A DNA stretch of 64,000 nt, from assembly GCA_949752745.1 (NCBI GenBank), contig OX457033.1, forward strand, positions 12,695,301 to 12,759,300, in the 5' to 3' direction. Positions 25,507 through 59,707 of the stretch are shown piece after piece. Source of the DNA: Protula sp. h YS-2021. Taxonomy: Eukaryota > Annelida > Polychaeta > Sabellida > Serpulidae. Position numbers and translations under genes: made by a program. The notes below the pieces were generated by a model. The model saw only the letters and a program-made list of their open reading frames with translations. It made no database searches and was not told the origin of the DNA. Position 1 is the first letter of the stretch; the number at the start of each line of letters is the position of its first letter.

Positions 25507-26594
25507 ATAATTTGATAAATGCTGTGACGCTTCGTTCTCGAAGACGACTGTGTTCGCAGCACTTATACCGTTATCAACAATTTTTAACAAGTCTCTGATC
25601 GATATTTGATCGATTGATCGATAATCGTAGATATAACCATTGAGTATCAATCTCGCTATCGCTAAGCATGTTCCGGAGTATTGATTTTGAGAACAATACG
25701 TCAGATTTGGCTGACCATCAAATCAATCATCCCAAATGCTAACATAAGTAAGTAAATTTGTTATAGATTTGACAAATGAGTTTCTTCCACGAGAAGTTTA
25801 AAAGTTCATGTGGTGATCATTTTGTTTCACAATGTACAGGAAAACTTTGTCATTGGACCACCCTGCAAACCGGACCACTTTGCAATAACTCGATCCGTTC
25901 TCAGTTCTACATAAAAAAAACCACAAGTAGAACGAATCCGGAAGTTGGACCACTTTAGCACTGGTGGACCTACTACCAAGATTCACCTGTATATATTTGA
26001 CTATACTTTATTTAGGGATAATAAACTGATCCTGTTGACTCAGTTACTGAGAACTACTCTCTACGTTACAGTACACACGGCTGCATTTGCATGCCCGGAT
26101 GGACTGGTTCCGGCTGCGAGACGCCCTTGGATCCAGCTTGCTACACGGCCACCGAAAATGCGGACTGTGGACATGGCGATTGTGGATCTGGTATATTACA
26201 ACTTAAATACACGAAATGCTTTAAAGTTCTTAACTCCATCAAATTCTGTAAAAATTATACTTGAAGTTTTCTCCATTTTGGGACTGTTAACATAAAATAT
26301 TGTTAATTGATTTAAATTAATTTTAAACCTTTAAAATATAACCAAAATTAATTCACCTACAAAAAGTGCTTTATCACATAAATTGTGAACACGTTTTCTG
26401 AAAATGAGGAAAGTTAGCGAGAAAGTGCGAGATCGCGTTCATTACAACCCTGTAAACAGCAGATACCTTTTGTCCAGTTCTTTTGCCAGTTCACTTCCTG
26501 GTAACTCCGTCATAGAGATTGGTGAATTTTGCTACAGCATTTTAAACATTCGCAATTGCAATTGCGCTGTACTTTTATTCTAACTGCAAGCTCC

Positions 26595-26675
<81 letters not shown>

Positions 26676-28502: not shown

Positions 28503-28540
<38 letters not shown>

Positions 28541-32751: not shown

Positions 32752-32804
<53 letters not shown>

Positions 32805-35049: not shown

Positions 35050-35141
<92 letters not shown>

Positions 35142-38100
35142 CCCGTGCGTAAATACTTCAGGGACGGTCCCTTTCCCTTTGTAAAAAACGACGAACAAAT
35201 AAATCTAGACAAGATATCGATTGTCATTGCATTGCAGTGGACTACTGTTACGGAGTGGATTGTCACCAGGGCCACTGCGATAACTTCCAGAATGGCTACG
35301 AATGTCGCTGTCTGGAGGGCTGGGAAGGTCAAGATTGCTCCCTGCACCACTGCATGGATTCAATTACATGCTTCAACGACGGAGTGTGTGGGTGGGTGTA
35401 ACTGCTACCTATACCTCCCTTTTACCTATAACGCCACGTAATATCAGGTTAAGTAACTACTTTAAATGATATATTGCTTCAGCAAAATAATAATAATAAT
35501 AACAATTTAAAGAAGAAACAAGTTAGATATATAGATATTAGAATTACTCATAGATAGTGTAAATACTGTACGTTTCTTATCTGTAATCGGTCAGAAACGA
35601 GCAACTCTTATGCAGAGTTTATGCCAGGAGTAAGTATAGGTCCTTGAATGGTCATATCACAAAAACACAAAATCTGTCTTAAGATGACCAAAGGTGACTG
35701 GTAACCATGTTAAAAGTGGCTGGTAACCATGTTAGAGGTGACTGGTAACCATGTTAAGGGTGAATGGTAACCATGTTAGAGGTGCCTGGTAATTATGTAA
35801 TAGGTGACTTGTAACCATGTTCAAAAGTGGCTGGTAACCATGTTAGAGGTGACTGGTAACCATGTTAGAATTAGTTACGCTGATTGGCTGATTAGTTACG
35901 CTTTGAGAAGTGACTGGTAATTTTTGTGTGACCCTAGCTACGAAGGATGCCGCTGCACGGATGAGTGGGAGGGCGAATCCTGTGAAATCCGCCGCCCCAG
36001 TGTTTGTGAAGGCATTGATTGCATCAATGGTGATTGTATCGAATCCGGGGGTGAGTTGAGCATTTATTATTGTCTAGCTTTTGACAAGCCAACCCCTATA
36101 CAATTCACTCAAAATCTGGCATCTTTCCGCTTTTGTTACAAACGCAGCTATTTTTTGTTTATCTTTTTTTGTTCATAACTGCTTGGCTTTTCACCTCCAA
36201 ACATTTCCACTTTGTCCATGCTAGTGAGCATTAAGCATTGATCGTTAGCCTTTTAATTTCAGAACTTGAGATGGTTTCGCAAAGGGCGAAAAAAGTAAAA
36301 TCCTTGATTTTTAATGTGGCAATTACGTAATGCTTTCGTTCTTTGGATTGAAAAAAAAACTGCGATCTTTTCTATTTATAGTTTTCAAATCTGCGGGACT
36401 GTGGCACTTAAACGCAAATATTTTTGACTTATCTGATCTAATAATCCTTTATATATCTATGTTAATTATTGGTTCTTACAGGCACCTACGAATGCAGATG
36501 CGATAGCGGCTATACAAACCAAAACCCCCAAGACGTATGCGACATCAGGAGCACGTACATAGATGGTGGGTCGTCCACAATAGCATGCCAAAATGGCGGC
36601 ATACCGTTAGAAGCTGAGGGCAATACACCTGAGCGCTGCGATTGTATGCCGGGTTATGACGGAGTGAACTGCGAAAGTAAGTTCTCTAACGTAATGCGGG
36701 AGTAAGTTCTCTAATGGTCGTGGCCGTAAGTTCTCTAATGGTCGTGGGAGTAAGTTCTGTAATGGTCGTGGGAGTAAGTTCTCTAATGGCCATCGGAGTA
36801 AGTTCTCTAACGTAATGCCGGAGTAAGTTCTCTAATGGTCGTGGGAGTAAGTTCTCTAATTGCCGTGGCCGTAAGTTCTCTAATGGTCGTGGGAGTAAGT
36901 TCTGTAATGGTCGTGGGAGTAAGTTCTCTAATGGTCGTGGGAGTAAGTTCTCTAATGGCCATCGGAGTAAGTTCTCTAATGTAATGCCGGAGTAAGTTCT
37001 CTAATGGCCGTGGCCGTAAGTTCTCTAATGGTCGTGGGAGTAAGTTCTCTAATGACTGTGAGAGTAAGTTCTCTAATGGCTGTGAGAGTAAGTTCTCTAA
37101 TGGCCGTCGGAGTAAGTTCTCTAACGTAATGCCGGAGTAAGTTCTCTAATGGTCGTGGGAGTAAGTTCTCTAATGACTGTGAGAGTAAGTTCTCTAATGG
37201 CCATCGGAGTAAGTTCTCTAATGTAATGCCGGAGTAAGTTCTCTAATGGTCGTGGCCGTAAGTTCTCTAAACGTCGTTGGAGTAAGTTCTCTAATGGCTG
37301 TGAGAGTAAGTTCTCTAATGGCCATCGGAGTAAGTTCTCTAATGTAATGCCGGAGTAAGTTCTCTAATGGCCGTGGCCGTTAGTTCTCTAATGGTCGTGG
37401 GAGTAAGTTCTCTGATGTAATGCCGGAGTAAGTTCTCTAATGGTCGTGGCCGTAAGTTCTCTAATGGTCGTGGGAGTAAGTTCTCTAATGGCTGTGAGAG
37501 TAAGTTCTCTAATGGCCGTCGGAGTAAGTTCTCTAACGTAATGCCGGAGTAAGTCCTCTAATGGTCGTGGGAGTAAGTTCTCTAATGACTGAAAATAAGT
37601 TTTCTAAAGGCCGTGGGAGTAAGTTCTCTAATGGCCGTAAGTGTAAGTTCTCTAACGTACTGGAAATTTTTTGAAGCCGCTTATTGTAATATGTTTTACA
37701 CTGCGGTAAGGTTAAGGAGGAAAATTGTTATCTCATACTATTTTAGAGGCAAGAAATCCGATAGTCGAATCTCCCATTTTTCTGGGTCGCCTGATGAATT
37801 CCAAAACATTCGAGACTTTCAAAAACATTTTTATCTGTTTACCGTCTTTAAATTGTAATTTGAATAACACACCCTCGTGAGATATATGGAATAATGTTAT
37901 TTTATGTTATTATTTCAACATTTATGGCATCGGAGATTCTGAAGTACGACATTATAAAAGAACTCTCAGCTGTTAACAGAGACCTATATTGTACCAATGA
38001 ACAATGTTCTCGAGATCATATCTAGAATTATTATATACTTATAAATATTCATGAGCACTCGTCCAGTAACAAGGCAGCTTTCTTATTTCGTCGTTCTGTA

Positions 38101-41100
38101 ACGGCTGTATGTCCTTGCAGTTGATTTGTGCGTTGAAACTGACTGCCACGAGCACGGTCGCTGTGTTTTACTGGAGAACGGTAGTCCCCAGTGCGTTTGT
38201 GATCAAGACAGATGGACTCACTCTGGCGGGCCTGATGCCACTCCGGGAGATTGCTCCCTTGAGACGCATCCAGACACTCCGGGAGTCACGTGCCAACATG
38301 GCGGCAGCTGTGTGTAAGTATTACATCACTTTGTAGTATCAAAAAAAAAAAACTTCATAGTGGGGAAACTCATGCTGCCAGGGTACCCATCCGTTTCCTA
38401 TTTAGCTTTACGCAGACAGTATGCTGTGGAACGTTTATTGCAACGTCATTCTTAACAAGCTGTAGTATTCGATCGAAATGTTTCAGTAACATTGTTTTTA
38501 TTTTGCCAAATCATTTCTACCAGATCGAACAGTCTCTTTGTGAAGCATATAGCATAACATGACCTGGAATAAGAAGCACATTAAATTAAAGCTGTTTCAG
38601 TTTGACATATTAAGAGAATGCATGTGGCTGATCCACAAACAATGTGATAGCTGGAAAACACATGATTACTTGAAATATCGTATGGTAGATATCATCAGAC
38701 TCCACTGAAATTAAAAAGAAAGAAATGGAGTTATGTGTTGGGAAACTAGATTTCAAGTATAGTCAACAGCCTCGCACACTGTATGCCACAGAATGACAGA
38801 ATAATATATTTTTTAAATTAGGTTTTCTATCAGAATTTAAATTTTTAATAGATTCTTTAAGGCAGCGAATTTTTTTTTTTGCTGAAGAATACTGTTTATG
38901 TTTAAGGATGAATGTTCATTAGTTCAAATTAGCAAATATACTTAATTTTATATTTGATATCTGAAATTACGTTTTAATAGTGACCGATGCACAGCAAGTC
39001 CGCCGTGTAGCTGCCCTTTCCCGTGGGTGGGGGCCAACTGTGAGACAGACGCCCCTTGTGATGCCTCATGGAACACGTGCGTTCACGGTACCTGCCACCA
39101 TGATGCTAGAAATGGCAGAGGTAATCTTTTTTTGTGTTTTGAAACAGACCCATGTGGTGCGTTTTGACATAGCGAAATAACAGAAAATCTTTTTACTATT
39201 ATTGTCAACGGGATTGAAAGAAAAACGCTTCAAACCTTTAAATGAAGGGTTTCAGTATCGAGAATCAAGGAATTAGACTTTGACGGTTGCCGCACTTACC
39301 AAAGTCAAGGGAATGTACTGAGCCACATGGTCTGTCACTTAAACCATAGCTGCCATTTGACTTTTTGACAATCTATTAATCTATTAATTAAATAAATACT
39401 CCATTAAATAAAATTAAATTGATTTTTTTTTCCTATTTTTATATCTGCCAATAGATTTCTGGTGCTATTGTGATGACGGCTATATAGAAAATCCGGACAC
39501 CGGTTTGTGCACGACGCAAATGTGTGACGGCACCTTTTGTGCTAATGGCGGCTCCTGTAACGGCGACGAGTTGTCATGTACATGTCCCCCTGGCACCACT
39601 GGCGACAACTGCGAGGACGGTATGTTTCTAGAGATAAGATAACACATTCAAAAGAGTACCCAGTCTAAACCTGGCCGTGACAAGATTGTTTGTCATAAAA
39701 CAACACTTGGGATGAAATTTCTGTTTAAGGTTGAGAATCAGTCATAGATTATGATTTACTGGGACATGCCAGTGTAGAAATATAAGTAGATTAGTTAGCT
39801 AAGTAAAATTTGAAAGTTTTGATTAATTACCTAAGTAAAATTTGAAAGTGCTCTCGTTTGTTATGGAGTATATCTTTGTAAAAGACTAAATTACAATAAA
39901 GAAATGCTATTTAGGTGGAATTTTATTTTGTTGTAACTTACTGTTACTTACTAAAAATATATTTATGTTTTGAGTGATGCGTCAATTGGAAGCAAGGAAA
40001 GGAGCCAATAAAAACATTAAACATTAAAAAATTAACATCAACGTCTTTCAAATAAGCGTATATTTATTTAAAGAATGATCTTATTTATTTCTTGGGATAT
40101 AGCCACAAATTCAATAGGAGCCCAATCTATACCTGGACGTGACACGACTGTGTACCACGAAGAACTAAAAATAATAGCTAATCACACAGTAGTATCAGAA
40201 TATAGGTGTTTTTTATTGCAAACATAAGGCATATAATTCAGTGAAAGCTTTCTTAATGTCCTTTAAAGAAGCGCGGATTTATTTATGAAAGTGTATTCCA
40301 AACAGATTTTGTAGAGCATAAAGAACAATCGGTACTGCAGATATCGAACGTTTTAATGCTAGAACTTCTAGAAAAAAAAACACGAAGTCATTAAGGCTTT
40401 TAAAGAAGTAAATTTCTCTGGGATTCCAAGTCATGTGGGAATTCGAGGTAACGAGATCGCTGATAGCGGCGAAAAAGGGGCTAATTGAGAATTGTTTTAA
40501 TTTCGTGATCCCATACCCAGGTTTTAAAAACCATATCTCAATATATAAAAAAAGTTTTTTGTTACTGAAATTTTAACAGAAAAGGAATAACAAGCTGTTT
40601 GAAATCATTTTCAGTATGCCAAGTGGCAAGAAAGTTATACACTGAAAGATATTTAATAGACTGAACGGATCTCTAAAACATTTCAGAGCTGACTGTTTAA
40701 AGGAGCTCTTTGGTGAAGAATTACCTATCAAAATTATAATTTTTTAAACGAAATGAACCTGTATCAGTATTTCTGGAAGCTATTTCTTATTGTAGTACAT
40801 ACACGATTTTAATTCACGCTGGATTTTATCTGTGATATTACTGTTTTCTTGTCATTGCCACATCTTGACACGACGTAACCCGCTAGAGGTCGGTCCTGTC
40901 GTTAAACAAATCATATAATTGACTAACTAATTAAACCTGTAAAAAGCTCTTGTGGGTACTGTGTGTGGATTGCATTTGCTTCTAGTGTGGATATTTAGCC
41001 TACAGAAACAACGATAAATATCTATCCCAAATTAAATGGTTCTGATTACGTGTTATATTCATATTTCAGGTGAAATTAAAAAAAAAAAAATTTTCGACAG

Positions 41101-44100
41101 TTGTTTAAATTATTATTTCAGTGGACTACTGCTATGAACGCGATTGCACCGGAAATGGTATCTGCTATATAAGGCACGAAGAGGAGTCTAATGATGGCGG
41201 AACGTTCATCGAATCCAGTTACGAATGCGTCTGTTATCAAGGCTGGCGAGGCGTCGACTGTGAGTTGCAGGTCTGCACTTCCGGTCTGACATGTTTCAAT
41301 GGCGGTTCCTGCGAGTAAGTGCACTATGTATCACTAATCAATACACATTAACTAGGCAAACGTCACAATACGACATCTGATCAACCTTGAGCGATCGTTG
41401 AATATTGAAATCAAAACAAGTAATAGATATCGGAGGAGTAATCTAAATTGCCATGAATATTTTTTCAAGGCAAGGTTAAAGACAATTTCTGAACTCTTGT
41501 CATTTTTTTTTCATTTTTCGTTCTCGTTTTGGCCTTTTTTGTAAAATGTTTGTTAATCTGAAGGGGCTGTGAGTTTATTGTGCCCCAACGTTTATATGCT
41601 CCGTTATCACACGTCAGACAAAGTGGTCGTTTTGTTGCGATCAAAGGCAAAGTCCAAACAACATTACTTATAGAACTTCCATCTAAAGTTGATTAGACTT
41701 ACATAGATCACTGACATGCTTTTGTTATACCAATCACAACCGAATTACTAATTTTTCTAGCCGACGTCTAAACTCTAATTCAATATTGGCTCGAACTTAG
41801 AATGTTTGATGGCCATATGTATCCAATTTTGATTGTGTTTTCGGTCTTACTGGAGCATATAATTATATATCTATTTCAATATGATTATTTCCACCTTTTT
41901 TTATATATCCTTATCCGTATGAGGATTAGCTTTTTGTTAAGAAATAACGACTGTGATGCATGAAAAAAGAATACGTGTTTGCTGTCTGGAGACCATGTGC
42001 AAAAGTGAAGCTGTCTGGATCTGTGCGCCTCTCTCATGTCTGGATCTGTGCGCCTCTCTCATGTCTGGATCTGTGCGCCTGCCATGTGATTCCGAGTGAC
42101 GTGGACTGATGGGAGTATCCATAACTGTAGCATTATCCTATTTTTATTCTTAGACCTACTGGCTGCGTGTGTCCAGATGAATGGCAAGGCACGTCCTGTG
42201 AGATCCCCGTACCCCCTGCCTGTACAGACATTCGGTGTGGTCACGGCACATGCAACAGAGCCGGTATGTCTCATTTCGGATCCCTTCTTCCTACCATTCA
42301 CATATCGAAGGCCGCCGTGTCAGAGCATATTGTTTATTTTTTAAACGATTTCTACCCTTCCTATCAAATAATAACAATAATAGCTAAACTAAATAAATAA
42401 ATCAAATAAATAAATAAAAGGTGATAAAGAGGTTCATCGCTAGTTTTTGCTTGAGTCGACAAGTTTGCCAATCACAGATGTCTCTTGCCTTACGATGACA
42501 ACAATAAAATGATGACAACAATAAAATAGCAAAATAAGAAAGCATAACCAGGTCCAGTCGCTAGGCTCATCGTCCTTGAAAACCATTTATGGTCAATAAG
42601 AAAGAGACCAGGTATTATTTTCGTACAGTATAAAGCGTAATTGATATTTAGCATACATGTCTTATATACTACAAATCTCAGTGATAACTAATATAATATA
42701 CCGATAAACAGGAAACTGCGAGTGTTACGACGAATACAGCGTGGGGCCTGTCACTGGAATCTGCGACACGCACACGCCATCTACGGGCGTGTGCTCGGGC
42801 ACTAGCTGTCAGAATGGCGGTACATGTGTCACACTGACAAATCTCTTGACATCTGTAGACGAGCCGCGTTGTGTCTGTACCACTGGCTGGATGGGTGACG
42901 ACTGTAGCGTCGGTAATCTACCTGCCTAGTTTTAGTATTCTCTGAATTTTTAATGATATGGTGAAAGCTTATTTATATGTATCAAATGAAGCTCATGTTA
43001 ATAAGAAGCTGCTTTCGCCACTTTGTAGACGTTCAGTAGACTCGTATAAAGAAAGACTTTGTTAGTCTATATGCTCGCGCTGTTGAAAAAAGTACTATAT
43101 ATTGCTTATACATAAATGTAAAATATTCCTATAAAATTTTGCATAGGGATTTTTTAGTCTGACCTTGACTTGTTAAACATTGCCGGTGTAAATATGTTGT
43201 TGACAGCACAACACGAATATCTATATCCAGCATGCTCTACAGGGAAAGGTTAGGTTCAGTAAACTACCTATTGACTTTCAGCCGTCACATTGTTAGGTAC
43301 GGGCTTGTGTGTGAAATAGTGGAGTGATTGATAGTGTATGTTTGTTTTCTACAGTGGATGAGTGTGATGCGTACGACTGTAGCGGTCGTGGCGCGTGTGT
43401 CATGTACTTGGGAACGACACCGCAGTGTAATTGTGACGACCCGCGCTTCGTTGCTGGCGACGGCGGCACTCAGGATTGTGATGCAGAACAATGCTCGGAT
43501 GGTTCTTTCTGTTACAATGGCGGAAGCTGTCAGTAAGAATAATCAGCTTCTTTCCATTGCAAAGAACGCACTACTAACTGATTTGTACAATAATGTCTTT
43601 TTTTGGAGATGAAAGATATTACACCAACATTTTAACGATCTTTGTCAATGAACTTTTAGTTTAAGCACAAGCATTATTATTCCTAAGTACGAATGCAACG
43701 ATAATCAATAAAATATCTGTGGTTTAATCATGAATTAATGGATGTTTCAGTGTAGCAATATTTAAACTATGTGGTGTGAGTAGGAGACACTTGTTTGATA
43801 AAAGGGTTTCATTGTTTATTATTACACGATTTTCATGAATTATGTATGGTGCTTTCCACTTGTAACATTATTAACGGATAATAATAAAAAAAAGATCACT
43901 GGCAGGCATTCAGACCACACTTTGCGTTCAGTTCGTTTTGAAAGTCTTACTTGAACTGTGTTCAACATTTTTACACCTGCTCATTCATGAAAAAAAATGT
44001 TGTTGAACTCGAACGCTGCAGCAAGTCATTTCTTGGTCGTTCTGCTCAAATCACAAAATACAATAGATTGTTGTCTGCATTGTTTCACCTGTCAAGCTTA

Positions 44101-44304
44101 GGTTATTGCACACAGGTCAGTGTCTTTCCAAGATCGATACATGACGAATATGATGTGATTTATAGGGTTGGGATGTCACCCTCTTGTGTCTGTCCTTACC
44201 CGTACACGGGAGGAACTTGTCAAGAAATAGAGGTGTGTCCAGAGAACCGCTGTCAGTATGGCTGGTGTACGATCAATGATGGCTGTAAGTCTGTCATTTG
44301 AAAC

Positions 44305-44358
<54 letters not shown>

Positions 44359-47300
44359 CAAGAATTATTTAGTACTTATTGAACCAATGTGCCCAATTTT
44401 ATCCATATCTGGATCAAATATATCCATATTTGATTTTAGAACTAACCATTATTTGGCAAGAAAAAGGCATAAACTATAACAACAGTTTTGAATGCATTAT
44501 TTATGTTAATTTTAATCGGCTGTATTTGTGTTGTTAACATTGGCCAGAAGAGGAAACAGGATTGAAGTGATTTAAAATGTTTCATGAAATGAATTTTGAT
44601 ATTGCTTCGCTCATGTTCTGCGTGTGTCAAGAAGCAAATCCAGATTGTGTCATTTGATATGAATGCGAAATGATCCACAATCAATCTCATAGAGTGAAAA
44701 CTGATTTTCTATAGCCATCAGCAGCGATACACATTTCAGGATATATCCTTGATTGTTTTATCTTCAAGTTCTAATCATGTTTTAACGTTAATATATGTGG
44801 TCATTTCAGTGGGGAATTTCGAGTGGGACTGTGAATGCTACCCTGGATACATCTACAATCACGTGACTGGATTGTGTGACACAGAGCTCTGCGCAGACGA
44901 TGCCACCTTCTGTTTCGGCGAAGGTTACTGCGTTGACGGACCCACGAGTAGCACGTGCACTTGCCGTCCAGGCACCACAGGAACGAACTGCGAAAACGGT
45001 AAGTTATATGCACCTTATATGCATATCAGTGCATATCATATTTACGTGTTCTTGTGACAACCAATGGGAGCACGGTATCTAGTGTGTATCCCATTTTGTC
45101 TATTTGTTGTACGACATTTCCTACGAGCAGCAAGCAAACTTATCGTCGAAGAACCACGGGGACCATCTTTGAACACGGTATAATAACTACTTGTCATTTC
45201 CCTCTCATTTGCCTCTCATGGCTCAGTTCTATTTTCTATCCGCCTAAGTGGTATTCACTAATCCTAAAGCCAATCGCTGACAGTTATTTCATTTTATCAG
45301 CATTTCAACAAGTGGATCCTAGTTAGATTGAAGCTGTAAGCTGATGATCCATTGGTTTATTCTAAATTTTATTTCAAAATAATTTAAAATTTACTCAACC
45401 AATGTCGGTAAAGGTTATATTGGCAACGAATCACTTTGGCCTTATCTGTGAAATATTCCAGGGAAATGACGTTATTTTATCAAATGACACCGCGTTGTAG
45501 TTGTTGCTATCGATGCAATCTCTCTTTCTGGCAAAGTTACAGTAGAAACGCTTGCTAGGCTGAATCCATTAAGAGGACTAAATCGCGAAATTTGTATACT
45601 ACCTGAGTTATTTCTGGAAACGAAAGTTAATTTTTGGTGTTTAATTTGTTTGTTAGTTGACCATTGCCACGGCGTGGATTGTCATAATGGCTACTGTGAA
45701 AACTTCCCTACGACGTATCAGTGTAACTGCCTGGAAGGCTACGAAGGAAGCCACTGCACGCTGCAGCATTGCACTGAAGAAAACACCTGCTTCAATGGCG
45801 GAGTCTGTGGGTAAGTCGGTTCTGTCAGTGCCCCCTTCTGTCCCCAGTAACACACCCCCCCCCCCCCCCGCTCATGTCATTGCGACGAAGTGTGTGAGTA
45901 AGATAGTTATATCAAAGTCACCCCTCCTGCCTTTTCCCCACAGTCACTGCTCCTGCAACAGTGGGGAAGTCTGTGTGGGTCAGCCTGTGATATCTATGCC
46001 CCCATATCCCTCCCCCCTCCCCCCCCCCCCCCATGTCAGTCTAAAATGTATTCATAGATGGCAAGGTAAAGGATTTTAAATCTTTATATCTGCAAAAAAA
46101 AAAAGATAAATAAATAATAAGAGATGTTTTATAAAATGACTTTAGTGAAATGTTTTTCCACATACTTTTGTGAATAACCCATCCAACAAAACCGCGGATC
46201 AGTGCATGGGCTGTGGTGCCGGTCGTGTTGTCATGCAGTGACCGACAGAGGGCAGCACGAGTTATGACGACACGTGTTGTCACACTGCTCTTTGTTGTTC
46301 AGGCATGAAGGCTGCCGATGCACGGACGATTGGGGGGGAGAGACATGTGAAGAGAGACTTGGTTACGGATGTGAAAATTATGACTGCGGCAACGGTCGCT
46401 GTGTATCTCCGCGGGGTATATTACTCACTAATTTACCTAGAACTATATTTTCTAAATATTAAGCAAAGTTCCGCACATTTGGAGAGGTTACTGTACCATT
46501 GATTAATACGCAAAATTATAGCATGTCGTTAATACCATATGACTTAAAATAGACTTAAAATAGCTTGCGTCCAACTTCACAAAAGAAATTCAGCATTTAG
46601 TATTCACTCAGAAAGAGAAAAAAAAAAGAAGATTTCATACAGGTCCCCTTATTCGATTTTTTATATGTTAAGACTGAGTTGATTTTGCTTTTGCTTTTTT
46701 AGTGTGTGCAGCCGAAGATTCAGCAGTTTTAAGCTTTACCATCAGCGGCCAGTCTTCTGGAGAAGGATCCGGAAATCAGTGGTCTGGAGCAGATAACGAC
46801 TGGTCTGACTGGGACATCGAATGGATAGAACTTGACCTTGGCTCACAGAAGCTGGTGCCCAAAGTGATCACCTCTGGTGTCGGTGATTCGTGGATCACCA
46901 CGTTCACATTAGCGTATAGGGACAGCACGGACGACGATTGGACACCTTTTCGCGGTACCCCAGGAACCGACTCTGTGTAATTTATTTGTTTCTTTTTTTT
47001 TTTTTTTTTTTTTTTTTTGTATTCTGATTGCGGATCAGTCTCACAGCGTTTATTAGACCAGTAAATAAATTGTATTTGCCTTGGCAAGAGGAAACGGGGG
47101 GGGGGCGGGGGGGGGGGAGATTGCCCTCAAAATATAACACATCTTGTAACAACGCTCGCATACAAATTGCGCAAAAAAGATAGTTATACAGTTTTGTAAA
47201 ACGTCACTGTTGAGGATCACAAAAATTGAAGTTTTGCTTAATTTGAATTATCGGTGAAGTTCACGATTATAAAGAAGTCCTTATACAGATTTTTTACCTC

Positions 47301-48912
47301 ACCAGCTAAAAAAAAATATAACAAATGATAGCGTCAGTAATATCATGATTTGACTTTAATGCTACAATCCACCAATCATATTTTCGACCTATCGACAACC
47401 TGGCGAACTAGACTACTTTTTTTTGGTACCTACTGAAAGCATCTAGTTTTTATGGTAAATATTTGGGCAGATATTTACCTTTGCACCTCTATATCTCTTG
47501 TTTTCAAAATGTATAACACGTTCACAGTTGTGCAGCGTGCATTTTTAAGATGTTGCCCACAGAATTCAAGTTTAATTCTCATAAGATTACAAATATGAAT
47601 TATATAATGTGTTATTTCGAGCTAATCAATTTAACGGTTAAATTTTTAGAACATTTTCAAATGGGCAAGGGGAAACAATGCACACAGTGAATCCACCCAT
47701 CCTCACGCGCTATTTGACCTTCATGGCTGTTTCTTGGCATCAATCGATAGCCTTGACCTTTAATATTTACGGCTGTAACTACAACGCTGGAGGCAAGTAT
47801 GCGCATTGAATGCGCTTCTCTCTACCGGGTTACTCTTGAACATGCACGTAAAGACTGCGTTAGCTACAGACTTCTTTTAAAGTTTCTCCAGTGCCATCTC
47901 TTGTCGTACTTTACTATACAGTGTTTGGAAAGGAGAAAAGTGAGCATGTTGCTCCCTGCGTTGGCTACAAGACAATATAAAATAAATGTCAAAGAATATT
48001 TGACACATTTAAAATCAATACTCTTTACACTACAATATAATAATGCTTTCTGCAGACCCCGTGTCGTGCCAGTGTGACAGTGGTTATACCCAGCAGTCCT
48101 CTGGCAGTCCATGTATAATCCGCGTATGTGAAACACTCGAATGCCAAAATGGCGGCCAGTGCGTGGAACCCTCCGGAAATACACCGGAACACTGCGATTG
48201 CATGCCGGGATACGAAGGCACGCTCTGTGAAGGTAAGCTGCATTTTAAAAACCACTTAGCTATTATTTGGTCAAAACAACAACTGCTAATAAATAAATCA
48301 GAATATTTAAAAAAAAAAAAAAACAAATCCGAAAGGCTGAGTATCGTGGTTTTGTCTTTGGCTGCTGAGAAAAAATATATGCAAAACAATTGAGCAAAAT
48401 AGTGAAATCGTTTTGAAATAAATAAAGTTGTTGTAAATGCTTTTTAATAGAGTCACAATAGTGTCACAATAGTATCCGCTCGACATAAAAGATTACATGT
48501 CTAAATCTATCAGGAAACATCAGCATTAGGACTTGGTTTGTATTTATACTAAAGCAAATGACAGGATTTCAGTGTAAGCGTGCGCATTGTCAGCTGTGAC
48601 ATGGTTCTTTTTATGGTGATTTCCATTGCACCATTTCAGCGACACTTTGCGTGGGAATCGATTGCCATGGTCACGGTCACTGTGTTCTACTACACGATGG
48701 CTCTCCACAGTGTGTGTGTGATCATAGCAGATGGACCCACTCGGGCGGAGACGAGGCCAGGCCGGGAGACTGCTCTCTGGAGACGCATCCAGACACTCCG
48801 GGAGTCACATGCCAGAATGGCGGCAGTTGTGTGTAAGTTTTGGTTTGGTTTATCTCGATCTGTTTTAAATATTTCATGGATTTTTTATTTCGTTTGATAC
48901 TTAATGAATTTA

Positions 48913-48982
<70 letters not shown>

Positions 48983-50206
48983 TGACACTTCTGTGTTATT
49001 CTTGAAGCCATTTTGCTTCTTTTTGATCATTCTCAACATTCAAAGTAATGATATGAAAAGAATAAGTAACTAAAACACCACAGAAAAAATATAACACAGC
49101 AGACTGTACCGTTTTTTCTCCACGAAGTCTTCACCATTAATTAAAAAAGGCCAGCCCACTGTGTATTATTGATATTTGGTTCTGGGAGATATGGCTGGTT
49201 TCTCGGAATGTTCTCAATGAATTTTCCAGTCTTAGCCTCTGTGCTAAAACAAACATAGTGTTTAGTGTCGAAGTTCTAATTTAGAGCTAATTATCTAATA
49301 AACACCTTTTCAGTACAGTAAATAGTCTGATGGAATGTGGTGTGCCGACATAAAATCAGATCTTTTTGAAATTATAATTTTTTATGCGTCGATTTATGAC
49401 TGTGTCCGTTCAGATTTGATCAATTTTGAAAAAATAGTTTATATTTCATATTACTCGGGGTTGGTAAAGAAATCATATTATTTTCAGGTTGATTTTACAA
49501 AGAGTTTGGGAAAAAAAAGCTTCAAATCTGTTACAACTTTGAAAAGTACGATGAGTTTTACAGTTGAAAACTTAGCCATTATTCCTATTAAACTGGTAAA
49601 TTTCCAAATTTCCTGCTTAACCTCATTTTTTTTTAAAAAACTGAGGAGTTTAATTAGTGGGAACCCTTTCTGGCCATCAACCCAACGCTAACATCTAATG
49701 AATTAGGTCTGTTGTATTTAACTCTCAGGGACCGATGCACAGCAAGTCCGCCGTGTAGCTGCCCTTTCCCGTGGGTGGGGGCCAACTGTGAGACAAACGC
49801 CCCTTGTGATGCCTCATGGAACACGTGCGTTCACGGTACCTGTCATCACGAAGCCAGGGATGGCCGAGGTAAACCCTATACTACTTAACACATTGCAAAA
49901 TCCAATAGTTGAGATAGCAAGGTAGGTGCTGGATAACGTATAGATGTCGGTTTGTCGGAAAGATATATTTTTTTTCTATCATTTCCAGTGGCATATTCAA
50001 GGAGAGAGCGAGGTGGGTGGGAGGAGGGGGGGTGGGGGGAGGAATCGTTCAGGAGTTGCAAATGCGAAACAAAATGTTGACTGTTGAACTTAAGGTTTCA
50101 CTGGTAAAATCGCTTCTTGTGATGATTATTTAAAATTGACTGCTCGTCCCCGCCCCCCCCCCCCACCTCCCACTTCTTGACCAAAACCTATATTCTAAAC
50201 TGAATT

Positions 50207-50272
<66 letters not shown>

Positions 50273-53200
50273 CATTCTTCAACATATTCTCCCTCTTTCT
50301 CTCTGCAGACTTCTGGTGCTACTGTGACGAAGGCCACATTTTGAATGACGACAGCGGCACCTGCACCACAACGATGTGTGACGGCACCTTCTGCATGTAC
50401 GAAGCCCCCTGTGGAGCCGATCAGCGTTCCTGCGATTGTCCGCCCGGCTATTCTGGCGATCACTGTGAAATCGGTATGTTGTGTCGTTGCTCCTACAATC
50501 ACAGCGTTAAAATATACCACATGAATCTGTAATTTACCGTGTTATGTTGAAAAATATTACACGTATTTACTGCCCAAAGTTGATGCTTTCTGTGCAAATT
50601 TTGCAAAGCAGTCTATAACTACAACTGTGCAGTTTTCTATATTAATATAAAGCATTTTAATTTATAAAAATCAAACTGAAAGCCACATATCAATGACACT
50701 TTGAGCTTCATAAAATGTTAAAAAAGTTTTATGGTATTACTTCAATTAGTACGCGAACTAAACAGTTGAGATAGAACTAGCATGTTTACACATTACGATA
50801 TGGTATTCGTTATTGCACTTCTGAATTTAATGCATTAGTTCAGAATGAGCAACACTTCCAGAATCTTACTTTTCGCGTAAATCGTGATCTATTCCTACTA
50901 ACTAAGCAAAACAATATGACCCCCTTTATCAAATATGATACCGTAATGCTATTTTTTCTGCCTGTAGTTGATTACTGCCACGAGCGGGATTGCACAGGCC
51001 ATGGTATATGCCGTATCCGGGACCAACTATATTACGAGTGTGTTTGCGAGCAAGGCTGGGTGGGAGTTGATTGTGAGCTACAGCGCTGCATCGGTGGTGA
51101 GACCTGCTTCAACGGCGGATCATGCTTGTAAGTGCATACATCCACAATGAAATAAAATAAACGGCTATATACCTTGTGTTCACGCTAAAGCTCTAACACC
51201 TAAAAAAAAAGTGTCATTGACTAGGGTGTCTAAATGCTTTATTGGTGTTAGAATGCTTTATCGTGGAATTCCGGTTTTATATGAATGATAGATCGTTTAA
51301 CTGAGTTATTATTTTCTGTGTTAAACGAGAAATTCATTGAAGTCCTTTTTGAAAGATGAGCGGTCGTTTGATTGGTATTTTGTTATTTAACAGTGATACG
51401 GGCTGTGTCTGCACCAATGAATGGCAAGGACGGACGTGTGAAATCCCCCTTCCCGCTGTGTGCAACAATGTGCACTGTGGTCATGGCACGTGTAACGACG
51501 CCGGTATGTCCCCTCCCCACACCCCTCCCCTGACCTGGTCATGGCACGTGTAACGACACCGGTATTTCCCTCCCCACACCCCTCCCCTGACCTGTGGTCA
51601 TGGCACGTGTAACGACGCCGGTATGTCCCCTCCCCACACCCCTCCCCTGACCTGTTCATGGCACGTGTAACGACACCGGTATTTCCCTCCCCACACCCCT
51701 CCCCTGACCTGTGGTCATGGCACGTGTAACGACACCGGTATGTCCCCTCCCCACACCCCTCTCCTGACCTGGTCATCGCACGTGTAACGACGCCGGTATG
51801 TCCCCTCCCCACATCCCTCTCCTGACCTGGTCATGGCACGTGTAACGACGCCGGTAGGTCCTCCCCACTCCCCTCCCCTGACCTACATTCATAACCACTT
51901 GCTTAACACACATTCCTTGTCCATGAGGATGGAAGGGAGTGGATCAACTCATCCCTTTTACAGAGCTGATTTTCTTCAGCTAACATGAATGTCTGTAAAG
52001 TACGCATACACGAAGTAAAGTTCAGCGGAATGGCGGGAGGGAGAGCTAATATCGCTCTGCATATAGTACAATAGTCACTGAGTTACGTCACAGATATGCC
52101 TACAGAACTGGAGGGTGCAGAAGGGTGAACAGTATTCAGTTTCACTAGTAATGACAAAAATAATGGCTCTAATGACGATTTTATGAGATTTTACTGTACA
52201 GTATCTAATTACGATAAATTATGATAGTTAAGATAAAAAAAAAATTCTATGAAGCTTTCCAAATATTTCGAAAAAAATGATCTCAAGCATTACGTTTTTG
52301 TGACAGGTAACTGCGAGTGTTACAACGAATACAGCGTGGGGCCTGTCACTGGAATCTGCGACACGCACACGCCATCTACGGGCGTGTGCTCGGGCACTGG
52401 CTGTCAGAATGGCGGTACATGTGTCACACGGACAAACGCCTATACGTCCGTTGACGAGCCGTTTTGTGTCTGTACTACTGGCTGGATGGGTGACGACTGT
52501 AGCACAGGTAAGTGTACCTTAGTTGTGCCTTTGGGTAAGTTTAGTTTACCATGTATATAAAGGGAAAACACTTCTTACGTCTGTCAATGATTGATGTCCT
52601 TCTCTTTCCTTTTTTTTTATTCCCCACAGGGAAATATTCGATCGACCGCGTGTGTCTGTCGGTCTGTCGGTCGGTCTGTCATCAAGAGCTTGTTAACACG
52701 ATAACTTAAAAATTCATGTAAGAATTTTAATGAAACTTGGTGTGTATAGCTTCTATGGGAACAAACACAGAGCGATATTGTAAATGGGCCAGGTTCGTTC
52801 AAGGAAAATGGACCAGCTGGACTTGGAAAATTTCAACTATTGATGGCCGTGTTTAACTGATGGGGGGGCCTGTGAGGAATATGTGGGCTTGCACACTGCT
52901 CTAGTTTTTTTGCTTATATAGTGGATGAGTGTGCTGAGTACGACTGCAGCGGTCACGGCGAGTGTGTCATGTACTTGGGAACGACACCGCGCTGTAATTG
53001 TGACGACATCCGCTATGCCGCGTCAGATGGCGGAAATCAGGATTGTGACCGCGAGTTGTGCTCCGATGGCACCTACTGCTACAATGGCGGCCGCTGCCAG
53101 TAAGCCCTTTGTACTACAATAGTCTACATTCTATAGTTTGTTCTTGAATGTGTCCTCACCAATACCGTTCGTCCTCGGTGAGCAAATTTAAGAGCAATTA

Positions 53201-53689
53201 ATGGGTCGGAACTCTAGCGTCAATAATCCAAGCAAATTTTAATGAAATAAAAATCGCCTTGCTTTCAGAGATGCTTTTCCTTTTTTATTTATTTTGTTGC
53301 AAACTGTTGTGTTGAAAACTATCTGAAGTTATTTAGAGGAGCCCTTTAAACCGTATTTGTTAATACACTAAAGGGAGCTTCAAATGCCTTTGTTTCAAGC
53401 CAAATTTAGCCTTGTAGCAAACTCATTGTGCCTTGCTCTTAAACAGACATCAGTTTGTAGTATTTTGATGTTGACGGCATTATCTTCCATTCAAAACCCA
53501 GATTAAAAAATATATTTCCAGCTTCTCATTTTTTGTGTATATTTTATTGCAGGACAGGAATAACCCCACCCTGCGCTTGTGTTTACCCATACACAGGCGA
53601 AAGATGCGAGGACGTAGAGGTTTGTCCACAGAGCCACTGTGTGTATGGGTGGTGCACGAGCAATGATGGCTGTAAGTTTTTCACTAGAA

Positions 53690-53755
<66 letters not shown>

Positions 53756-56700
53756 GGAAGTAAGTTCATCCGCATGCATACAGCTCTGACTTCTCTATTT
53801 AACTATTTAAAATCGTCTGAAAATGGAAGAAATCGTCTTGATTAACATAATTTCTTTTTGAAAAGTAATAACTTTAGCACGTTTTGTTTGACTTGATTAA
53901 TTTTGTATTCACATTGCAAGATTTTCTATAGCATCGTTTATTATTTTCAGCCGGAGATTTCCTGTGGGACTGTGAATGCTACCCTGGATACATCTACAAT
54001 CACGTGACTGGATTGTGCGACACAGAGCTCTGCGCGGATGGTGCCACCTTCTGTTTCGGTGGTGGCTACTGCGTTAACGGACCCACGAGTAGCACGTGCA
54101 CCTGCCGTCCAGGCACCACAGGAACGAACTGCGAAAACGGTAGATGATATACATCTCATTTGACATCACCTTCTCATATGTTTTGAAATCTTTATATGTC
54201 ACAGTTTCTTATGTTAGAACCCTCTGACTTAAAATTTCGTAGTCTGAAGAGATGAAGGTCGCGCCTGTGAACAATACAGGAAGGCTACGGAATGGATTGA
54301 AATGAGTGTATATTTTACTGCAACATATAACGTCCTAAATATAAATATGAGCAAATGCACACCTAGACAGGTAGTACCAATGGCTGTAGAGGCTGGTATT
54401 GTGCTTTGCAGTCGATTATTGCCATGGTGTTGACTGCCATAACGGCCACTGTGAGAACTTCCCGACATCATACCAGTGCAACTGCCTGGCCGGCTGGGAG
54501 GGAGAGCACTGCACCATCCACCATTGTGTTGGTGGCGTGACCTGTTTCAACGGTGGAGTTTGTGGGTACGACAACAAATAAATTAATGACTTTTGTTTGT
54601 GTTCGTTGACGATAACTGCAAATTCTATGATTAAAGAGTGAGTACCTCAAATGGTACTGTGTCTGATTTAAATTGAATCTGCTCAAATATTATCCTTATT
54701 GTATCCGGCGGCAATTTCTTAAATATTCTCGTGACCTTACAGTTTACTTGTAAATGCCATTTACCGCACAGCATCATAGCAAAATAGTGCTCATATTTTT
54801 AAAATTGGTTTCATTAAGGATTTGTATTTTAAAAATAATTTTTTCTTATTTCTGATTGTAACGATAATGTATGTATATGTTACAGCGGATCTGTCAAATA
54901 TTTTTTTTTGTTGAAAATTTCAGCGGCTTTGTAAAATCGCTGGTTCACTTAGCGGCTTTGCAAAGCTACTAGAATTTTCATCGGCTTTGTAAAGCCGCTG
55001 GTTTTAGAGCTCGAAAATTTGACAATTCCGCTGAAATGATAAAGTAGAAACGGCATAGGAATATGTATTACACATCCTTTGTGTGTGTTTGTACCTGTGT
55101 ATATGGGTCTATCTTTTCGGATAATGCACTCTTAAAATAGGACTTTTTCTAATCCAAGAAGAACTAAAGTATAACACCGACTTATAGACAATAGACTTAG
55201 GAATGACGTGGTATTGTTTAGATATGAGGGCTGTCGTTGCACGAACGAATACGAAGGCCGGTCGTGCGAGACGCGACGCGGTTACGGCTGTGAGGGCTAT
55301 GACTGCGGCTTCGGTGACTGCATTTCCCCTCGAGGTATGGCACATTCTCAAGAAACCAAACTTGTTTTTGCTTTTATTTATTTGTTTATTTTATTTATTT
55401 TTTTTTTTTGATTTTTTTTATTTTGATATTTTTTGTTTGTTTTATTGTTTTAAATGCAGGCATAGTTTCAATACTTGTATTGTTTTACAGTATGTCCGGT
55501 ATTCATACAGTAAGAGTACAAACTCCCGTCCGCCCCACTGATGGCGATAACTCTCACCCGTACTGATGAAAATACTCAGTGAAATCCCTTCTGAGGACTA
55601 AAGACAATCGCTTCTTGTGTGTTTTGTGTTTTTTTTTCAGCTATCCTCATTACCATGATAATATAAAAGAAAAGACAATATAAAAATCTATTGGCGCAAG
55701 GTGGCACAGTTAACATTTGTCTATTGTTTTTATTATGATTATCATTTACATCAAGGTATTACCTGCAAAACTGAACGCAAAAGTGCCGTAAAGGTGACAA
55801 AAAAAAAAAAAAAAAAAACAATTTTAAGCAATTAAACAGAGCAGCGTAATCTTTTACAGACCAGTCATAGTAGACAACAGCAGAGTATGTTTCTAGAAAA
55901 TAGAAGCCAGCGCTTCGCTGTTAAACGTTTGTGTTTCAATCACAAAGCGAAAATCTCAAGAGAAAATATTTACTGATATATTGCAGTTTGTCCAGCGGAG
56001 TCATCTGTACGTCTGAGCATCACCAGCACTGACGTGTCCAGTGGGAGCATGACGTCATCAGAGTGGTCTGGAGCGGATAATGATCATTCTGACTTTGACT
56101 ACGAATGGGCTGTCTTGTCCTTGTCCGGAGTTAAAATGGTGTCCAAACTAACGACATCGGGATCATCTGGAGCTGACGTGACGTTATTTTATCTGTCGTA
56201 TCGATCAGATGGTGGCAATTTTGTGTATGTCAGAGACTCCACAGAAAGGTGAATTTTATTTGAAAAAATTACAGTTTTATGTGTATTCCGTAATCGTATG
56301 TAATTACAATGAAGAGAGAGAGAGAGAGGGAAAATATTATTATTGCTCCCAGCCACTACTGTTTCCAAGTTTCCACGAAGTTCACAGAGCTATACTGTAC
56401 AACAGCAAAATACTTCTCTTTTATCCCACGTATCCAGACCCTATTTTAAGGTTGTGATTATGCTACCGGAAGTAGGAAAGGCCACAGAAATCAGCTGCTT
56501 ACACTTCACATTGTTTCTATTTATATGTCGAGAAGCCGACAGATTGGCCATCACTTGATTATCAGAATTAAATCATAAGTGTGAAGACATACTGCAAGCT
56601 TTATAGCTTTTTTATGGTTTAGAAGATTGCAATAATGTTTATCTTGCTACGTGTCACTGTTTGTGTAGTATATTATGTTTTCTCTACTAAATTGCCGTCC

Positions 56701-58800
56701 CGGGTTCATATGTGGCTACCATGCGTGCCCAAAAGGCGGGGGAGGGGTAATTTTGATACCAGACGCGATGGGTGCTGAGTGCCAATTTCGTCAGGAAAAA
56801 AGAGAGGTTATTTTCATCGATTACTCCTCGTTTTCCTCAAAAGGGGTGTTTCTCGTAAAGGCACTGCGGTGTTGATTGAAAAATGGGACAGTATTTAAAA
56901 ATTAGCACTCTGTATTTAGGGACCATTGTAAAAAGTCATGGGCATGCATTGTAATCACTTGGTACGTGAGTGTCCCCCACCCCCCTCTCCCCCCGGACTA
57001 AATTTAACGGCGAATATCAGCTCTGGTCAGACAACTATGTTTTGTGAGATAGATTGCTTATCTTGTTCTCCAAGAATCAAATACGATATACTATTGCTTA
57101 TTTCAGTCGAACGGTGTTCGCCAACGGTGACACATCGCATGATTTAGCTACCGCATTCGTGGCCAATCAGATTAAGGTCGAAGCTCTCACGTTTCACTCT
57201 AGCATTGTAATCGAAATCTACGGATGTGATTATAACCCAGATGGTAATTGCATAGAGAATATTAAAATAACACAATGTGTATAATTTGGTAGCTTATACT
57301 GTAAGAAAGAGAGAGAGAGAGAGAGAGAGAATATTTAATACACAGATGAGTATTAAACGATTCTGATCTTATCTTAGTGAGAGATAGTACAATATCAGCA
57401 TTACAAGATAACATGTAATGCAGAAGCCGTAAAATATGTAGTATTTTGGGTTTTAACTGAACTCATTTTAACCGAAATGATAGTAATACGTCATTCATGT
57501 ATGTGTCATTTTTAGCATTTCCGATCTCATGCAAAACACATGTTCCAATCTCAGGCTAAAAAGATGCAAAATGTAAACAAGTCATTTTGTTGTTAGATCC
57601 TGTCAGGTGCGAGTGTGACGTCGGCTACGCACACCAAGACACTTGGGACAATAGCAGCTCATGCACCACTAGAACATGCCGCACACGCGCCTGTTACAAT
57701 GGAGGCTCCTGTATTGAGGAGTCTGGTAATGATCCAGAACTCTGCGACTGCATGCCTGGATACGATGGCGAAAACTGTGAAAGTAAGCGAAACCTTTCTT
57801 TTCTGTTTTGCATATTTGAACATTAATGTTTAGATATTTGTTTAGTTTTGTAAGCAGTATCTTTTATAGTGGATGTTTTTGGTGCACTGTAATATAACTG
57901 CAAAAAGTGAAAACACATTGATGGCCATGTCGCTATATTAATCAAAATTATAAAAAAAAACTTTAAGTAGAAAATTAAAGTCTTCATAAAAATAGTCCTG
58001 AAGGAATCAAAGAGAAATGACTTTTATTTCTTTACAAATATGGACGTACGAAATGACATTAATTGGCTTATTGGATTGAAGCTAAGGTCTTTTTCTGTTC
58101 TTGGAAAATATTTAGAAAATTGTCATTAATTATGTTATTAGTTCTCACTTGTGTTGGCGTTGACTGTCACGACCACGGTCGTTGCGTTCATCAAGAAAAC
58201 GGCGCTGGACTGTGCGTTTGTGATCAAGACAGATGGACCCACGCTGGCGATGCCCCTCCGGGAGATTGTTCCCTGGAGACGCATCCAGACACTCCGGGAG
58301 TCACGTGCCAACATGGCGGCAGCTGTGTGTAAGTCAAGTCTTATTCTAGTATTGTCTCTACCGACAAATAAATATTCGTTCAGCCAGGAGTACTCCTCTA
58401 CTTAAGTTTTCTATTGCTATTCGACCAAAGAAGGAGGCTCATGTATTATGCGATATTGTATAGTTTGTGAATGACAGAACTGTTTCATTCCATAATCATG
58501 GTCGTTTTCATATGAATAAGAAGTTTGATGAGGAAGTGATATATTTCTCCGTGTCTCACTGTACATGAATTTTAGCACGCCTCTGTTTTGGGATTGTTTC
58601 GTAATAATGATTTTCTTTTTTTTTTTTTTTTTTGTCTGCTTGTGAGATCATAAAAACGACGCGATTATTTTATGTATAATGAAAGAAATTGTTTATGTAT
58701 AATCACCATTATATAATATACGAAAGCAGAAATATTGTTAATTTGCCAATTGGTTTTAGGCATAACAAATTGAACAGGATTTTATATATACAAGTACCAG

Positions 58801-58898
<98 letters not shown>

Positions 58899-59647
58899 GT
58901 CTTTTTCGAATTACTTAATAGTGACCGATGCACAGCGAGTCCGCCGTGTAGCTGCCCTTTCCCGTGGGTGGGGGCCAACTGTGAGACAAACTCCCCTTGT
59001 GACGCCTCATGGAATACATGCGTCCATGGAACCTGTCACCCAGAAGACAGAAATGACCGAAGTTTGTTTGTTTTTTATTATCGTACTAGAGATTTTTTAA
59101 CTAAATTTTTAAATTATGCATAAATTATAAATAACTACAGTTTTGGTTTCCAGTACATTTTTTTTTTTATTTTGGCGTAGAAAGTCAACACATTCAGTTT
59201 TCTTCTGAAAAATGATATGTAATTTTTTTTGTTTATATACAACAGTTTGACCCTTGTATGAGACAAAATAACCCCTGTAGCAAGTTTGGTGGTAATATTG
59301 TATCGAAATTAGTTTCTAATGTATTGTCCTCTTTGAATGATCGTAGATTTCTGGTGTTGCTGTGACGACGTATTTTATTTGAATGGTTGTGAGTTTTCGG
59401 GTGTGACTGTGACAGCTTATTTCTATGTCAATGATTGATCGTAGATTTCTGGTGTTACTGTGACGACGGCTACCTCGAGGACCTGGATACGGGACTGTGC
59501 ACGATTGAAGAGTGTGACACTGGCTTCTGCATGCATGGCCAAAGCTGCGCAGACGATCAACAATCCTGTGACTGCTGGCCCGGATATTCTGGAATTAATT
59601 GCCAGACCAGTATGTTTCCCTTTTTTAAATGAATTTCAAAATCTGAC

Positions 59648-59707
<60 letters not shown>

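What the first reader, a model, noticed from the sequence alone, without database searches (positions are those of the whole stretch)
46303..48232. A discoidin domain nested inside an EGF domain, repeated in two places
E43 ends after Cys3 of an EGF (YGCENYDCGNGRC). A whole F5/8C domain with its own opening Cys and closing YGC follows (E44-E45), and E46 supplies Cys4-6 (CQCDSGYTQQSSGSPC). The same arrangement occurs at E57-E60. In the older paralogous block, E31 joins E32 directly and the EGF is unbroken. Exon phases (1-2, 2-1) make the pair a phase-1 insert. Known exon shuffling usually adds domains between domains; here it falls within one, between Cys3 and Cys4, where the EGF is already split by an intron.
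Basis: partly seen in the sequence, partly recalled or inferred. Interest (0 to 1): 0.85.

Follow-up and report, generated by a model that had tools for sequence, protein, structure and literature searches.

The report
Discoidin domains nested inside EGF domains
In an unnamed animal genome, a giant predicted extracellular gene carries whole discoidin domains encoded in the middle of EGF domains, at the same point each time, which suggests exon shuffling that builds side branches on a rod rather than adding beads to its string.

Summary
E43-E46 (46303-48232) and E57-E60 (55222-57782) read in phase as EGF Cys1-3, a whole F5/8C domain, EGF Cys4-6. No exon that would complete the EGF halves was found between them. 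In paralogous block A (E31|E32) the same EGF is uninterrupted.

The gene runs on about 57 kb past the window. In the extended draft, 8 of 37 readable EGFs split by a phase-1 intron at Cys3|Cys4 hold F5/8C-type inserts (9 domains; 8 reach a Pfam cut-off). A ninth EGF holds an unidentified domain. No insert was recognised at 37 phase-1 introns between EGFs, nor at 37 phase-2 introns at Cys3|Cys4.

An inverted gene copy keeps one nested unit in the same order (discoidin dN/dS 0.36). One host EGF lacks Cys2 and Cys4, on opposite sides of its insert, as expected if the halves still pair.

The mechanism is ordinary class 1-1 shuffling; the address is unusual. Laminin L4 sits at the same point of an LE domain, so the kind is known; discoidin in plain EGF, many times in one gene, is the variant. 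RNA, folding, function and species are untested.

The parts
46303..46415 (+). E43, type a (2->1): Cys4-6 of one EGF, then Cys1-3 of the host EGF (block B)
46703..46976 (+). E44 (1->2): first part of the nested F5/8C domain, opening Cys
47650..47792 (+). E45 (2->1): rest of the F5/8C domain with closing YGC; GC donor
48056..48232 (+). E46, type b (1->1): Cys4-6 of the host EGF, then a complete EGF
55222..55334 (+). E57, type a: Cys1-3 of the host EGF (block C)
55987..56248 (+). E58 (1->2): first part of the second nested F5/8C domain
57107..57243 (+). E59 (2->1): rest of the second F5/8C domain
57597..57782 (+). E60, type b: Cys4-6 of the host EGF
35938..36050 (+). E31, type a, block A counterpart without insert
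36482..36676 (+). E32, type b, block A counterpart; joins E31 across a 431-bp intron
31237..41314 (+). block A, E25-E36 (12 exons, no insert)
42154..51127 (+). block B, E37-E50 (12 EGF exons plus the two discoidin exons)
51394..60035 (+). block C, E51-E64 (12 EGF exons plus the two discoidin exons)
13257..60587 (+). exons E5-E65 of the host gene, continuing to about 121 kb counted from window position 1
5416..10304 (+). NIDO-domain pieces upstream, likely the N-terminal part of the same gene
   Evidence: joining to E5 not shown

Best explanation
The gene encodes a very long extracellular rod (probably a NIDO domain, then roughly 150 EGF domains by cysteine count). It is built from a three-exon cycle, c (1->2), a (2->1), b (1->1), in which a|b introns are phase 1 and cut an EGF between Cys3 and Cys4. 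Discoidin modules flanked by phase-1 introns entered such a|b introns, probably more than once, and tandem duplication of 12-exon blocks copied at least one of them (blocks B and C). In the protein the discoidin domain, whose two ends lie together, replaces the tip of the EGF hairpin between Cys3 and Cys4. The host EGF still closes around it, so the rod stays continuous and the discoidin stands out sideways as a ligand-binding branch, as laminin L4 does. Shown: exon structure, phases, domain identity, coding constraint, one unit conserved in an inverted gene copy, no recognised insert between EGFs. Inferred: splicing, folding, binding.
For: Open in-phase draft of 138 exons, 7888 aa, 0 stops with all resolved inserts, and 117 exons, 6404 aa, 0 stops without them (one exon end, 89725-89797, uncertain by up to 24 codons). 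Nine F5/8C-type domains at 8 a|b junctions; Pfam bits B3 48.9, C3 32.3, D3 40.5, E2 23.4 (below the cut-off 28.2), E3 36.7, F2a 32.7, F2b 37.4, F3 42.9 (PF22633, cut-off 27.8), H1 77.1. The 11 insert units built are multiples of 3, stop-free, phase 1 in and out. Inserts at 9 of 37 readable a|b junctions (38 with one unreadable), 0 of 37 b|c, 0 of 37 c|a (tally; search for inserts); Fisher 9 of 37 against 0 of 37, p 0.002, though junctions are not independent. Inverted copy (L017): order a-X-discoidin-b kept; for 6 of 7 exons equal lengths and conserved AG/GT sites; discoidin 122 of 151 identical, dN 0.111, dS 0.306, ratio 0.36, approximate p 3e-4. B against C discoidin dN/dS about 0.2 with dS saturated. 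Of 38 a|b EGFs two lack Cys2 and the same two lack Cys4; one is the host F3, whose two cysteines flank the insert (assignment by eye). Linker lengths equal in B and C. Internal introns of 6 of 9 discoidins lie within six alignment columns, each phase 2.
Against: No RNA or protein data. Joined host halves reach the PF00008 cut-off in only 2 of 9 cases (B3, G1); F2 matches no EGF model. The Cys2/Cys4 evidence rests on one inserted EGF and could predate its insert. The absence of inserts elsewhere rests on profiles of the known inserts and on a simple exon finder that scored some accepted insert exons low (E2 second exon 3.8), so other kinds could be missed. Discoidins other than the B-C pair are 9-26% identical and their tree is weak, so the number of arrivals is uncertain. 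Several downstream exon ends were chosen by hand.
Confidence: 0.8

Rival explanations
1. The discoidin pair is an optional cassette: the same EGF exists intact (skipped) and branched (included) in different isoforms.
For: Each unit is symmetric 1-1 and the frame stays open when all are left out. E45 has the only GC donor of 61, and GC donors are enriched in alternatively spliced genes (PMC2490688, abstract). The four discoidin donors rank low: 9, 7, 13 and 16 of 57 others score below E44, E45, E58 and E59.
Against: Symmetric phase is expected of any shuffled module. Acceptors are mixed (54, 6, 29 and 54 of 57 below) and the donor test was made after the fact.
Confidence: 0.35
2. The host EGFs are broken remnants: the halves do not pair and serve as loose linkers on either side of the discoidin.
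For: Few joined halves reach the Pfam EGF cut-off (2 of 9).
Against: 8 of 9 hosts keep all six cysteines and the ninth lacks a bonding pair. In H1 the host exons are 101 of 108 identical to the inverted copy with dN/dS 0.18, although exon a alone is 0.38. The uninterrupted A counterpart also stays below the EGF cut-off (20.5 bits).
Confidence: 0.12
3. The discoidin exons are decaying or never-spliced passengers in introns.
For: Copy C has lost several typical residues, E2 lacks the terminal cysteines and falls below the Pfam cut-off.
Against: No stops in the units built, conserved phases, B-C dN/dS about 0.2, H1 against its copy 0.36 with conserved splice sites.
Confidence: 0.05
4. Block A lost the insert rather than never having it; the gain predates the A-B-C split.
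For: The exons flanking the insert do not resolve A, B and C (best A+C 60/56; B+C AU p 0.34), and block exons 9-12 share most sites between A and B.
Against: The whole-block tree groups B with C (93/94; A+B AU p 0.035, A+C p 0.077), the more distant block E13-E24 also lacks it, and the A intron shows no remnant.
Confidence: 0.2

Closest known systems
Laminin L4 (domain IV) inserted in a laminin-type EGF (LE) domain
   Same: A globular domain interrupts an EGF-type domain 'between residues three and four', read in context as cysteines (PMC9788559, passages seen). From recall, L4 is also a jelly-roll beta-sandwich and occurs in perlecan.
   Different: Host here is a six-cysteine EGF, not an eight-cysteine LE; the insert is F5/8C, not L4; eight hosts were found in one gene, with several insert types, beside many uninterrupted paralogues.
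Class 1-1 exon shuffling in metazoan extracellular proteins
   Same: Phase-1 flanked modules entering pre-existing phase-1 introns, 'as a rule' (PMC3927616, passages seen).
   Different: The examples in those passages are described as domains added to an architecture; here no recognised insert lies in a phase-1 intron between EGFs, only inside EGFs.
NIDO-EGF proteins such as SNED1
   Same: NIDO pieces lie upstream of the EGF exons; a SNED1-annotated protein is among the EGF matches (P0006).
   Different: Other SNED1 domains were not looked for; nested discoidins are not part of SNED1 as recalled.
Proteins with in-line EGF and F5/8C domains (MFGE8 and EDIL3 by recall; P0117 and P0125 fetched)
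   Same: The same two domain types in one protein.
   Different: P0117 and P0125 are the two of 174 fetched proteins listed with PF00754; read by eye, 0 of 2 have it nested, in both it follows a complete EGF.

Membership tests
F5/8 type C (discoidin) domain, PF00754/PF22633 | profile score above the curated cut-off | tested here: met
   8 of 9 domains reach a cut-off; E2 does not, 23.4 of 28.2 bits
F5/8 type C (discoidin) domain, PF00754/PF22633 | opening and closing cysteines that bring the ends together | tested here: inconclusive
   by reading the translations, both present in B3, C3, D3, E3, F2a, F2b and H1, absent in E2, not in that form in F3; pairing not testable
EGF domain split by an insert | Cys1-3 before and Cys4-6 after the insert | tested here: met
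   8 of 9 hosts (including G1) complete; F3 lacks Cys2 and Cys4
EGF domain split by an insert | joined halves recognised as EGF by Pfam | tested here: inconclusive
   2 of 9 above the PF00008 cut-off, most others weak, F2 none; the uninterrupted A counterpart also below it at 20.5 bits
Class 1-1 exon shuffling | insert flanked by phase-1 introns within a phase-1 intron | tested here: met
   the 11 units built; the start of the G1 unit was not resolved
Laminin L4-in-LE | eight-cysteine LE host | tested here: not met
   six-cysteine EGF hosts
Laminin L4-in-LE | L4 domain as insert | tested here: not met
   Pfam lists F5/8C families for the discoidins, nothing for domain X or the Cys-rich exon, and no laminin IV family
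SNED1-like NIDO-EGF protein | NIDO domain spliced to the EGF array | tested here: inconclusive
   two NIDO pieces above and one below the cut-off upstream; joining to E5 not shown

The most novel reading that the evidence does not exclude
The phase-1 intron at Cys3|Cys4 of EGF domains is a docking address: this gene has repeatedly taken in globular domains (three forms of F5/8C and an unidentified domain X) inside EGFs and not between them, because only a side branch leaves the EGF rod intact. If the cassettes are optional in splicing, the animal would tune how many branches its rod carries.
Probability: 0.35. Interest if true: 0.82.

Novelty: new variant of a known kind. Interest (0 to 1): 0.68.

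Why it matters
Domain insertion is usually seen only as an end product. Here one gene holds inserted and uninserted versions of the same EGF side by side, intron phases included, so the step can be read off directly. It also suggests a rule that can be tested in other genomes: in EGF rods, globular domains are tolerated inside the Cys3-Cys4 hairpin, as in laminin, and here were not found between EGFs.

Tried and rejected
Extra exons completing the EGF halves: none found. A discoidin remnant in E31|E32 or another intron of the window: none credible; the best other match has E 0.16 by profile and 0.74 by tblastn. In the extended sequence a profile of all nine discoidins gave 17 exon matches at E <= 0.5, each belonging to a reported insert. 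Relatives in other animals: (453 aa, 940 candidates) had no significant hit; two searches returned EGF proteins (148 with E <= 0.001, 120 listed; and 60), and none was found with a nested discoidin, but only the two listed with PF00754 were examined for it. These searches admit only proteins of 0.55-1.75 times the query length, so an orthologue as long as this gene could not have been seen; absence elsewhere is not shown. Viral contigs: nothing. Literature: searches listed no paper on a discoidin nested in an EGF; a survey of domain insertions does not contain the words EGF, discoidin or laminin (PMC13114784, term search only). Only open-licence papers are held. Domain X: no Pfam or NCBIfam match and no credible PDB match. 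Alternative donor GTGTAA for E44 (phase 0): rejected, E45 then runs into a stop (frame visible). Flank-exon tree: unresolved. Donor-strength argument for alternative splicing: weak and post hoc.
Full report
What was checked. The window is animal genomic DNA, G000:C10:12695301-12759300 of an unnamed assembly of 863 Mb in 218 contigs. From E7 on, apart from the four discoidin exons, it repeats three exons: c (phase 1->2, one EGF plus Cys1-3), a (2->1, Cys4-6 plus Cys1-3 of the next) and b (1->1, Cys4-6 plus one EGF). Both the c|a and the a|b intron therefore cut an EGF between Cys3 and Cys4, in phase 2 and phase 1; b|c introns lie between EGFs in phase 1. Twelve exons make a block; blocks A (E25-E36), B (E37-E50) and C (E51-E64) are tandem copies, and E13-E24 is a more distant one.

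The finding itself. In blocks B and C the seventh block exon (E43, E57; type a) is followed by two exons that encode an F5/8C domain, and then by the type-b exon (E46, E60). Phases are 1->2 and 2->1. Pfam scores are 48.9 and 32.3 bits against a cut-off of 28.2, and the nearest solved structures of copy B are C domains of coagulation factors V and VIII. The discoidin keeps its opening cysteine and closing YGC. Linkers to the host cysteines are 5 and 9 residues in both copies; the 16 uninterrupted a|b EGFs of the window have Cys3-Cys4 loops of 5-12 residues, and without the insert the B and C loops would be 8 (residues shown). E45 ends in AG|GCAAGT, the only non-GT donor of 61. No candidate exon in the four flanking introns holds three cysteines. 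A gene finder trained without the discoidin exons found three of four exactly, and 56 of the 61 model exons.

Age and selection. A quartet tree of whole blocks groups B with C (93/94, not counted as shown by the tree tool; A+B AU p 0.035, A+C 0.077). The two flanking exons alone do not resolve this (best A+C 60/56; B+C AU p 0.34), and in block exons 9-12 A and B share most sites (28 against 11 and 17 at the protein level). One gain in the B-C ancestor is the simpler reading; loss in A is not excluded. Discoidin B against C: 54 of 121 residues identical, dN 0.62, dS 3.2 (saturated), ratio about 0.2; EGF exons on either side 59 of 97, rest of the block 398 of 534. The insert diverges faster than its host but under constraint.

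Beyond the window. I fetched the next 80 kb and modelled it (positions counted from window position 1). The cycle continues to about 121 kb. F5/8C-type inserts recur at a|b junctions: D3 (two exons; 71.3-74.3 kb), E2 (two exons; 80.8-82.3 kb; below the Pfam cut-off), E3 (two exons; 83.8-86.0 kb), F2 (two successive single-exon discoidins; 93.0-95.6 kb), F3 (a Cys-rich exon and a three-exon PF22633-type domain; 97.3-100.7 kb) and H1 (an unidentified domain X in three exons, then a two-exon discoidin; 112.5-116.0 kb). Domain X also appears, its start unresolved, at G1 (103.0-105.7 kb; E 0.0034 and 0.043 for two pieces). Pfam bits in this order: 40.5, 23.4, 36.7, 32.7 and 37.4, 42.9 (PF22633), 77.1. 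One a|b junction (65.8-69.9 kb) contains 3287 N and is not counted. The draft with the resolved inserts is 138 exons, 7888 aa, no stop; without them 117 exons, 6404 aa, no stop (one exon end, 89725-89797, uncertain by up to 24 codons; the G1 unit left out).

Where inserts go. Of 38 a|b junctions 37 are readable: 8 carry F5/8C-type inserts and one more carries domain X. Of 37 b|c junctions (35, plus 2 in which b is itself split) and 37 c|a junctions, none carries a recognised one (tally; profiles of the inserts; exon finder). The exon finder proposed some unassigned exons there; I judged them by their low score, low complexity or minisatellite make-up. It also scored some accepted insert exons low (3.8 for the second E2 exon), so this absence is firm for discoidins and less so for other domains. 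Fisher 9 of 37 against 0 of 37 gives 0.002, and 0.02 with five events counted; copies are not independent, so this is an indication. c|a introns cut the same place in phase 2 and are empty, as phase compatibility predicts. b|c introns have the right phase and lie between domains, yet are empty; that is the surprising part. My inference: a side branch within an EGF hairpin keeps EGF-EGF packing, while an in-line bead would not.

Do the halves still pair? Of 38 a|b EGFs, two have one cysteine short in exon a and no C-x-C start in exon b; by eye they lack Cys2 and Cys4 (Fisher 0.0014, same caveat). One is uninterrupted (77.8|78.8 kb); the other is F3, whose Cys2 and Cys4 positions lie on opposite sides of its insert. 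EGF pairing is 1-3, 2-4, 5-6 (recalled), so the paired loss in F3 suggests a bond across the insert. A third EGF (108.3|108.8 kb) lacks the C-x-C start with exon a complete; by eye it lost Cys5 and Cys6. The loss in F3 could predate its insert. Joined halves reach the PF00008 cut-off in 2 of 9 hosts.

The inverted copy. A search of the genome with discoidin B found, besides itself and copy C, its closest relatives on the minus strand of the same contig: 90% identical for E44 and 82% for E45, and a second pair at 45% and 41%, the level of copy C (47% for E58); other listed matches are at most 34%. The fetched piece L017 covers the H1 counterpart: exon a, X, discoidin and exon b in the same order. 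Of seven exons six mapped with equal length and conserved AG and GT; x2 did not map end to end. Across the insert region DNA matches are confined to exons and short flanks, whereas beyond exon b a 2.7-kb stretch with introns aligns at 85%. Discoidin: 122 of 151 identical, dN 0.111, dS 0.306, ratio 0.36; domain X (two of three exons) 0.34; host a+b 0.18, exon a alone 0.38. The inserts are thus maintained as coding sequence. The B and C region of that copy could not be fetched.

Number of arrivals. Six discoidins (B3, C3, D3, E2, E3, H1) share a phase-2 intron within six alignment columns; F2a and F2b have none; F3 has two introns. Their tree is weak. Several insert types and positions argue for repeated arrival, but transfer between junctions by unequal recombination is possible.

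Known relatives. [quoted passage not shown] Class 1-1 modules enter phase-1 introns as a rule (PMC3927616, passages). So mechanism and address both have precedents; the combination (discoidin in six-cysteine EGF, many times in one gene, with uninserted paralogues beside it) I did not find in the searches named under Tried and rejected, which cover open-licence papers only.

Limits. No transcript, protein or fold evidence; species unnamed; the protein database could not show an orthologue of this length; hand-set exon ends downstream may shift by a few codons.

Noticed in passing
window 51475-51884: A 58-bp minisatellite of about 7 copies repeats the end of exon E51 together with its 5' splice site (...TGTAACGACGCCG|GTATGT), again at an EGF Cys3|Cys4 boundary.
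   Followed up: partly
window 36676-37655: A 24-bp minisatellite of about 40 copies starts at the E32/intron border and its unit holds the donor-like AGTAAGT.
   Followed up: no
G000:C10:12490001-12562825, minus strand; L017: Pieces of an inverted copy of this gene lie about 130-205 kb upstream of the window start, nested inserts included; its full extent was not seen.
   Followed up: partly
113735-114674 and about 104207-105238 counted from window position 1 (L013): Domain X: about 150 residues in three exons (1-0, 0-0, 0-1), nested in two EGFs, without a Pfam, NCBIfam or credible PDB match.
   Followed up: partly
window 5416-10304: NIDO-domain pieces upstream of the EGF exons suggest a NIDO-EGF architecture of SNED1 type.
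   Followed up: partly
window 21-473, minus strand, and neighbouring ORFs to about 2600: Broken retroelement ORFs; one has a reverse-transcriptase match (PF00078, E 1.1e-8). DIRS-like by eye only.
   Followed up: no
108332-108489 and 108810-109028 counted from window position 1: An EGF that by eye has lost Cys5 and Cys6 together, a second kind of paired cysteine loss.
   Followed up: no
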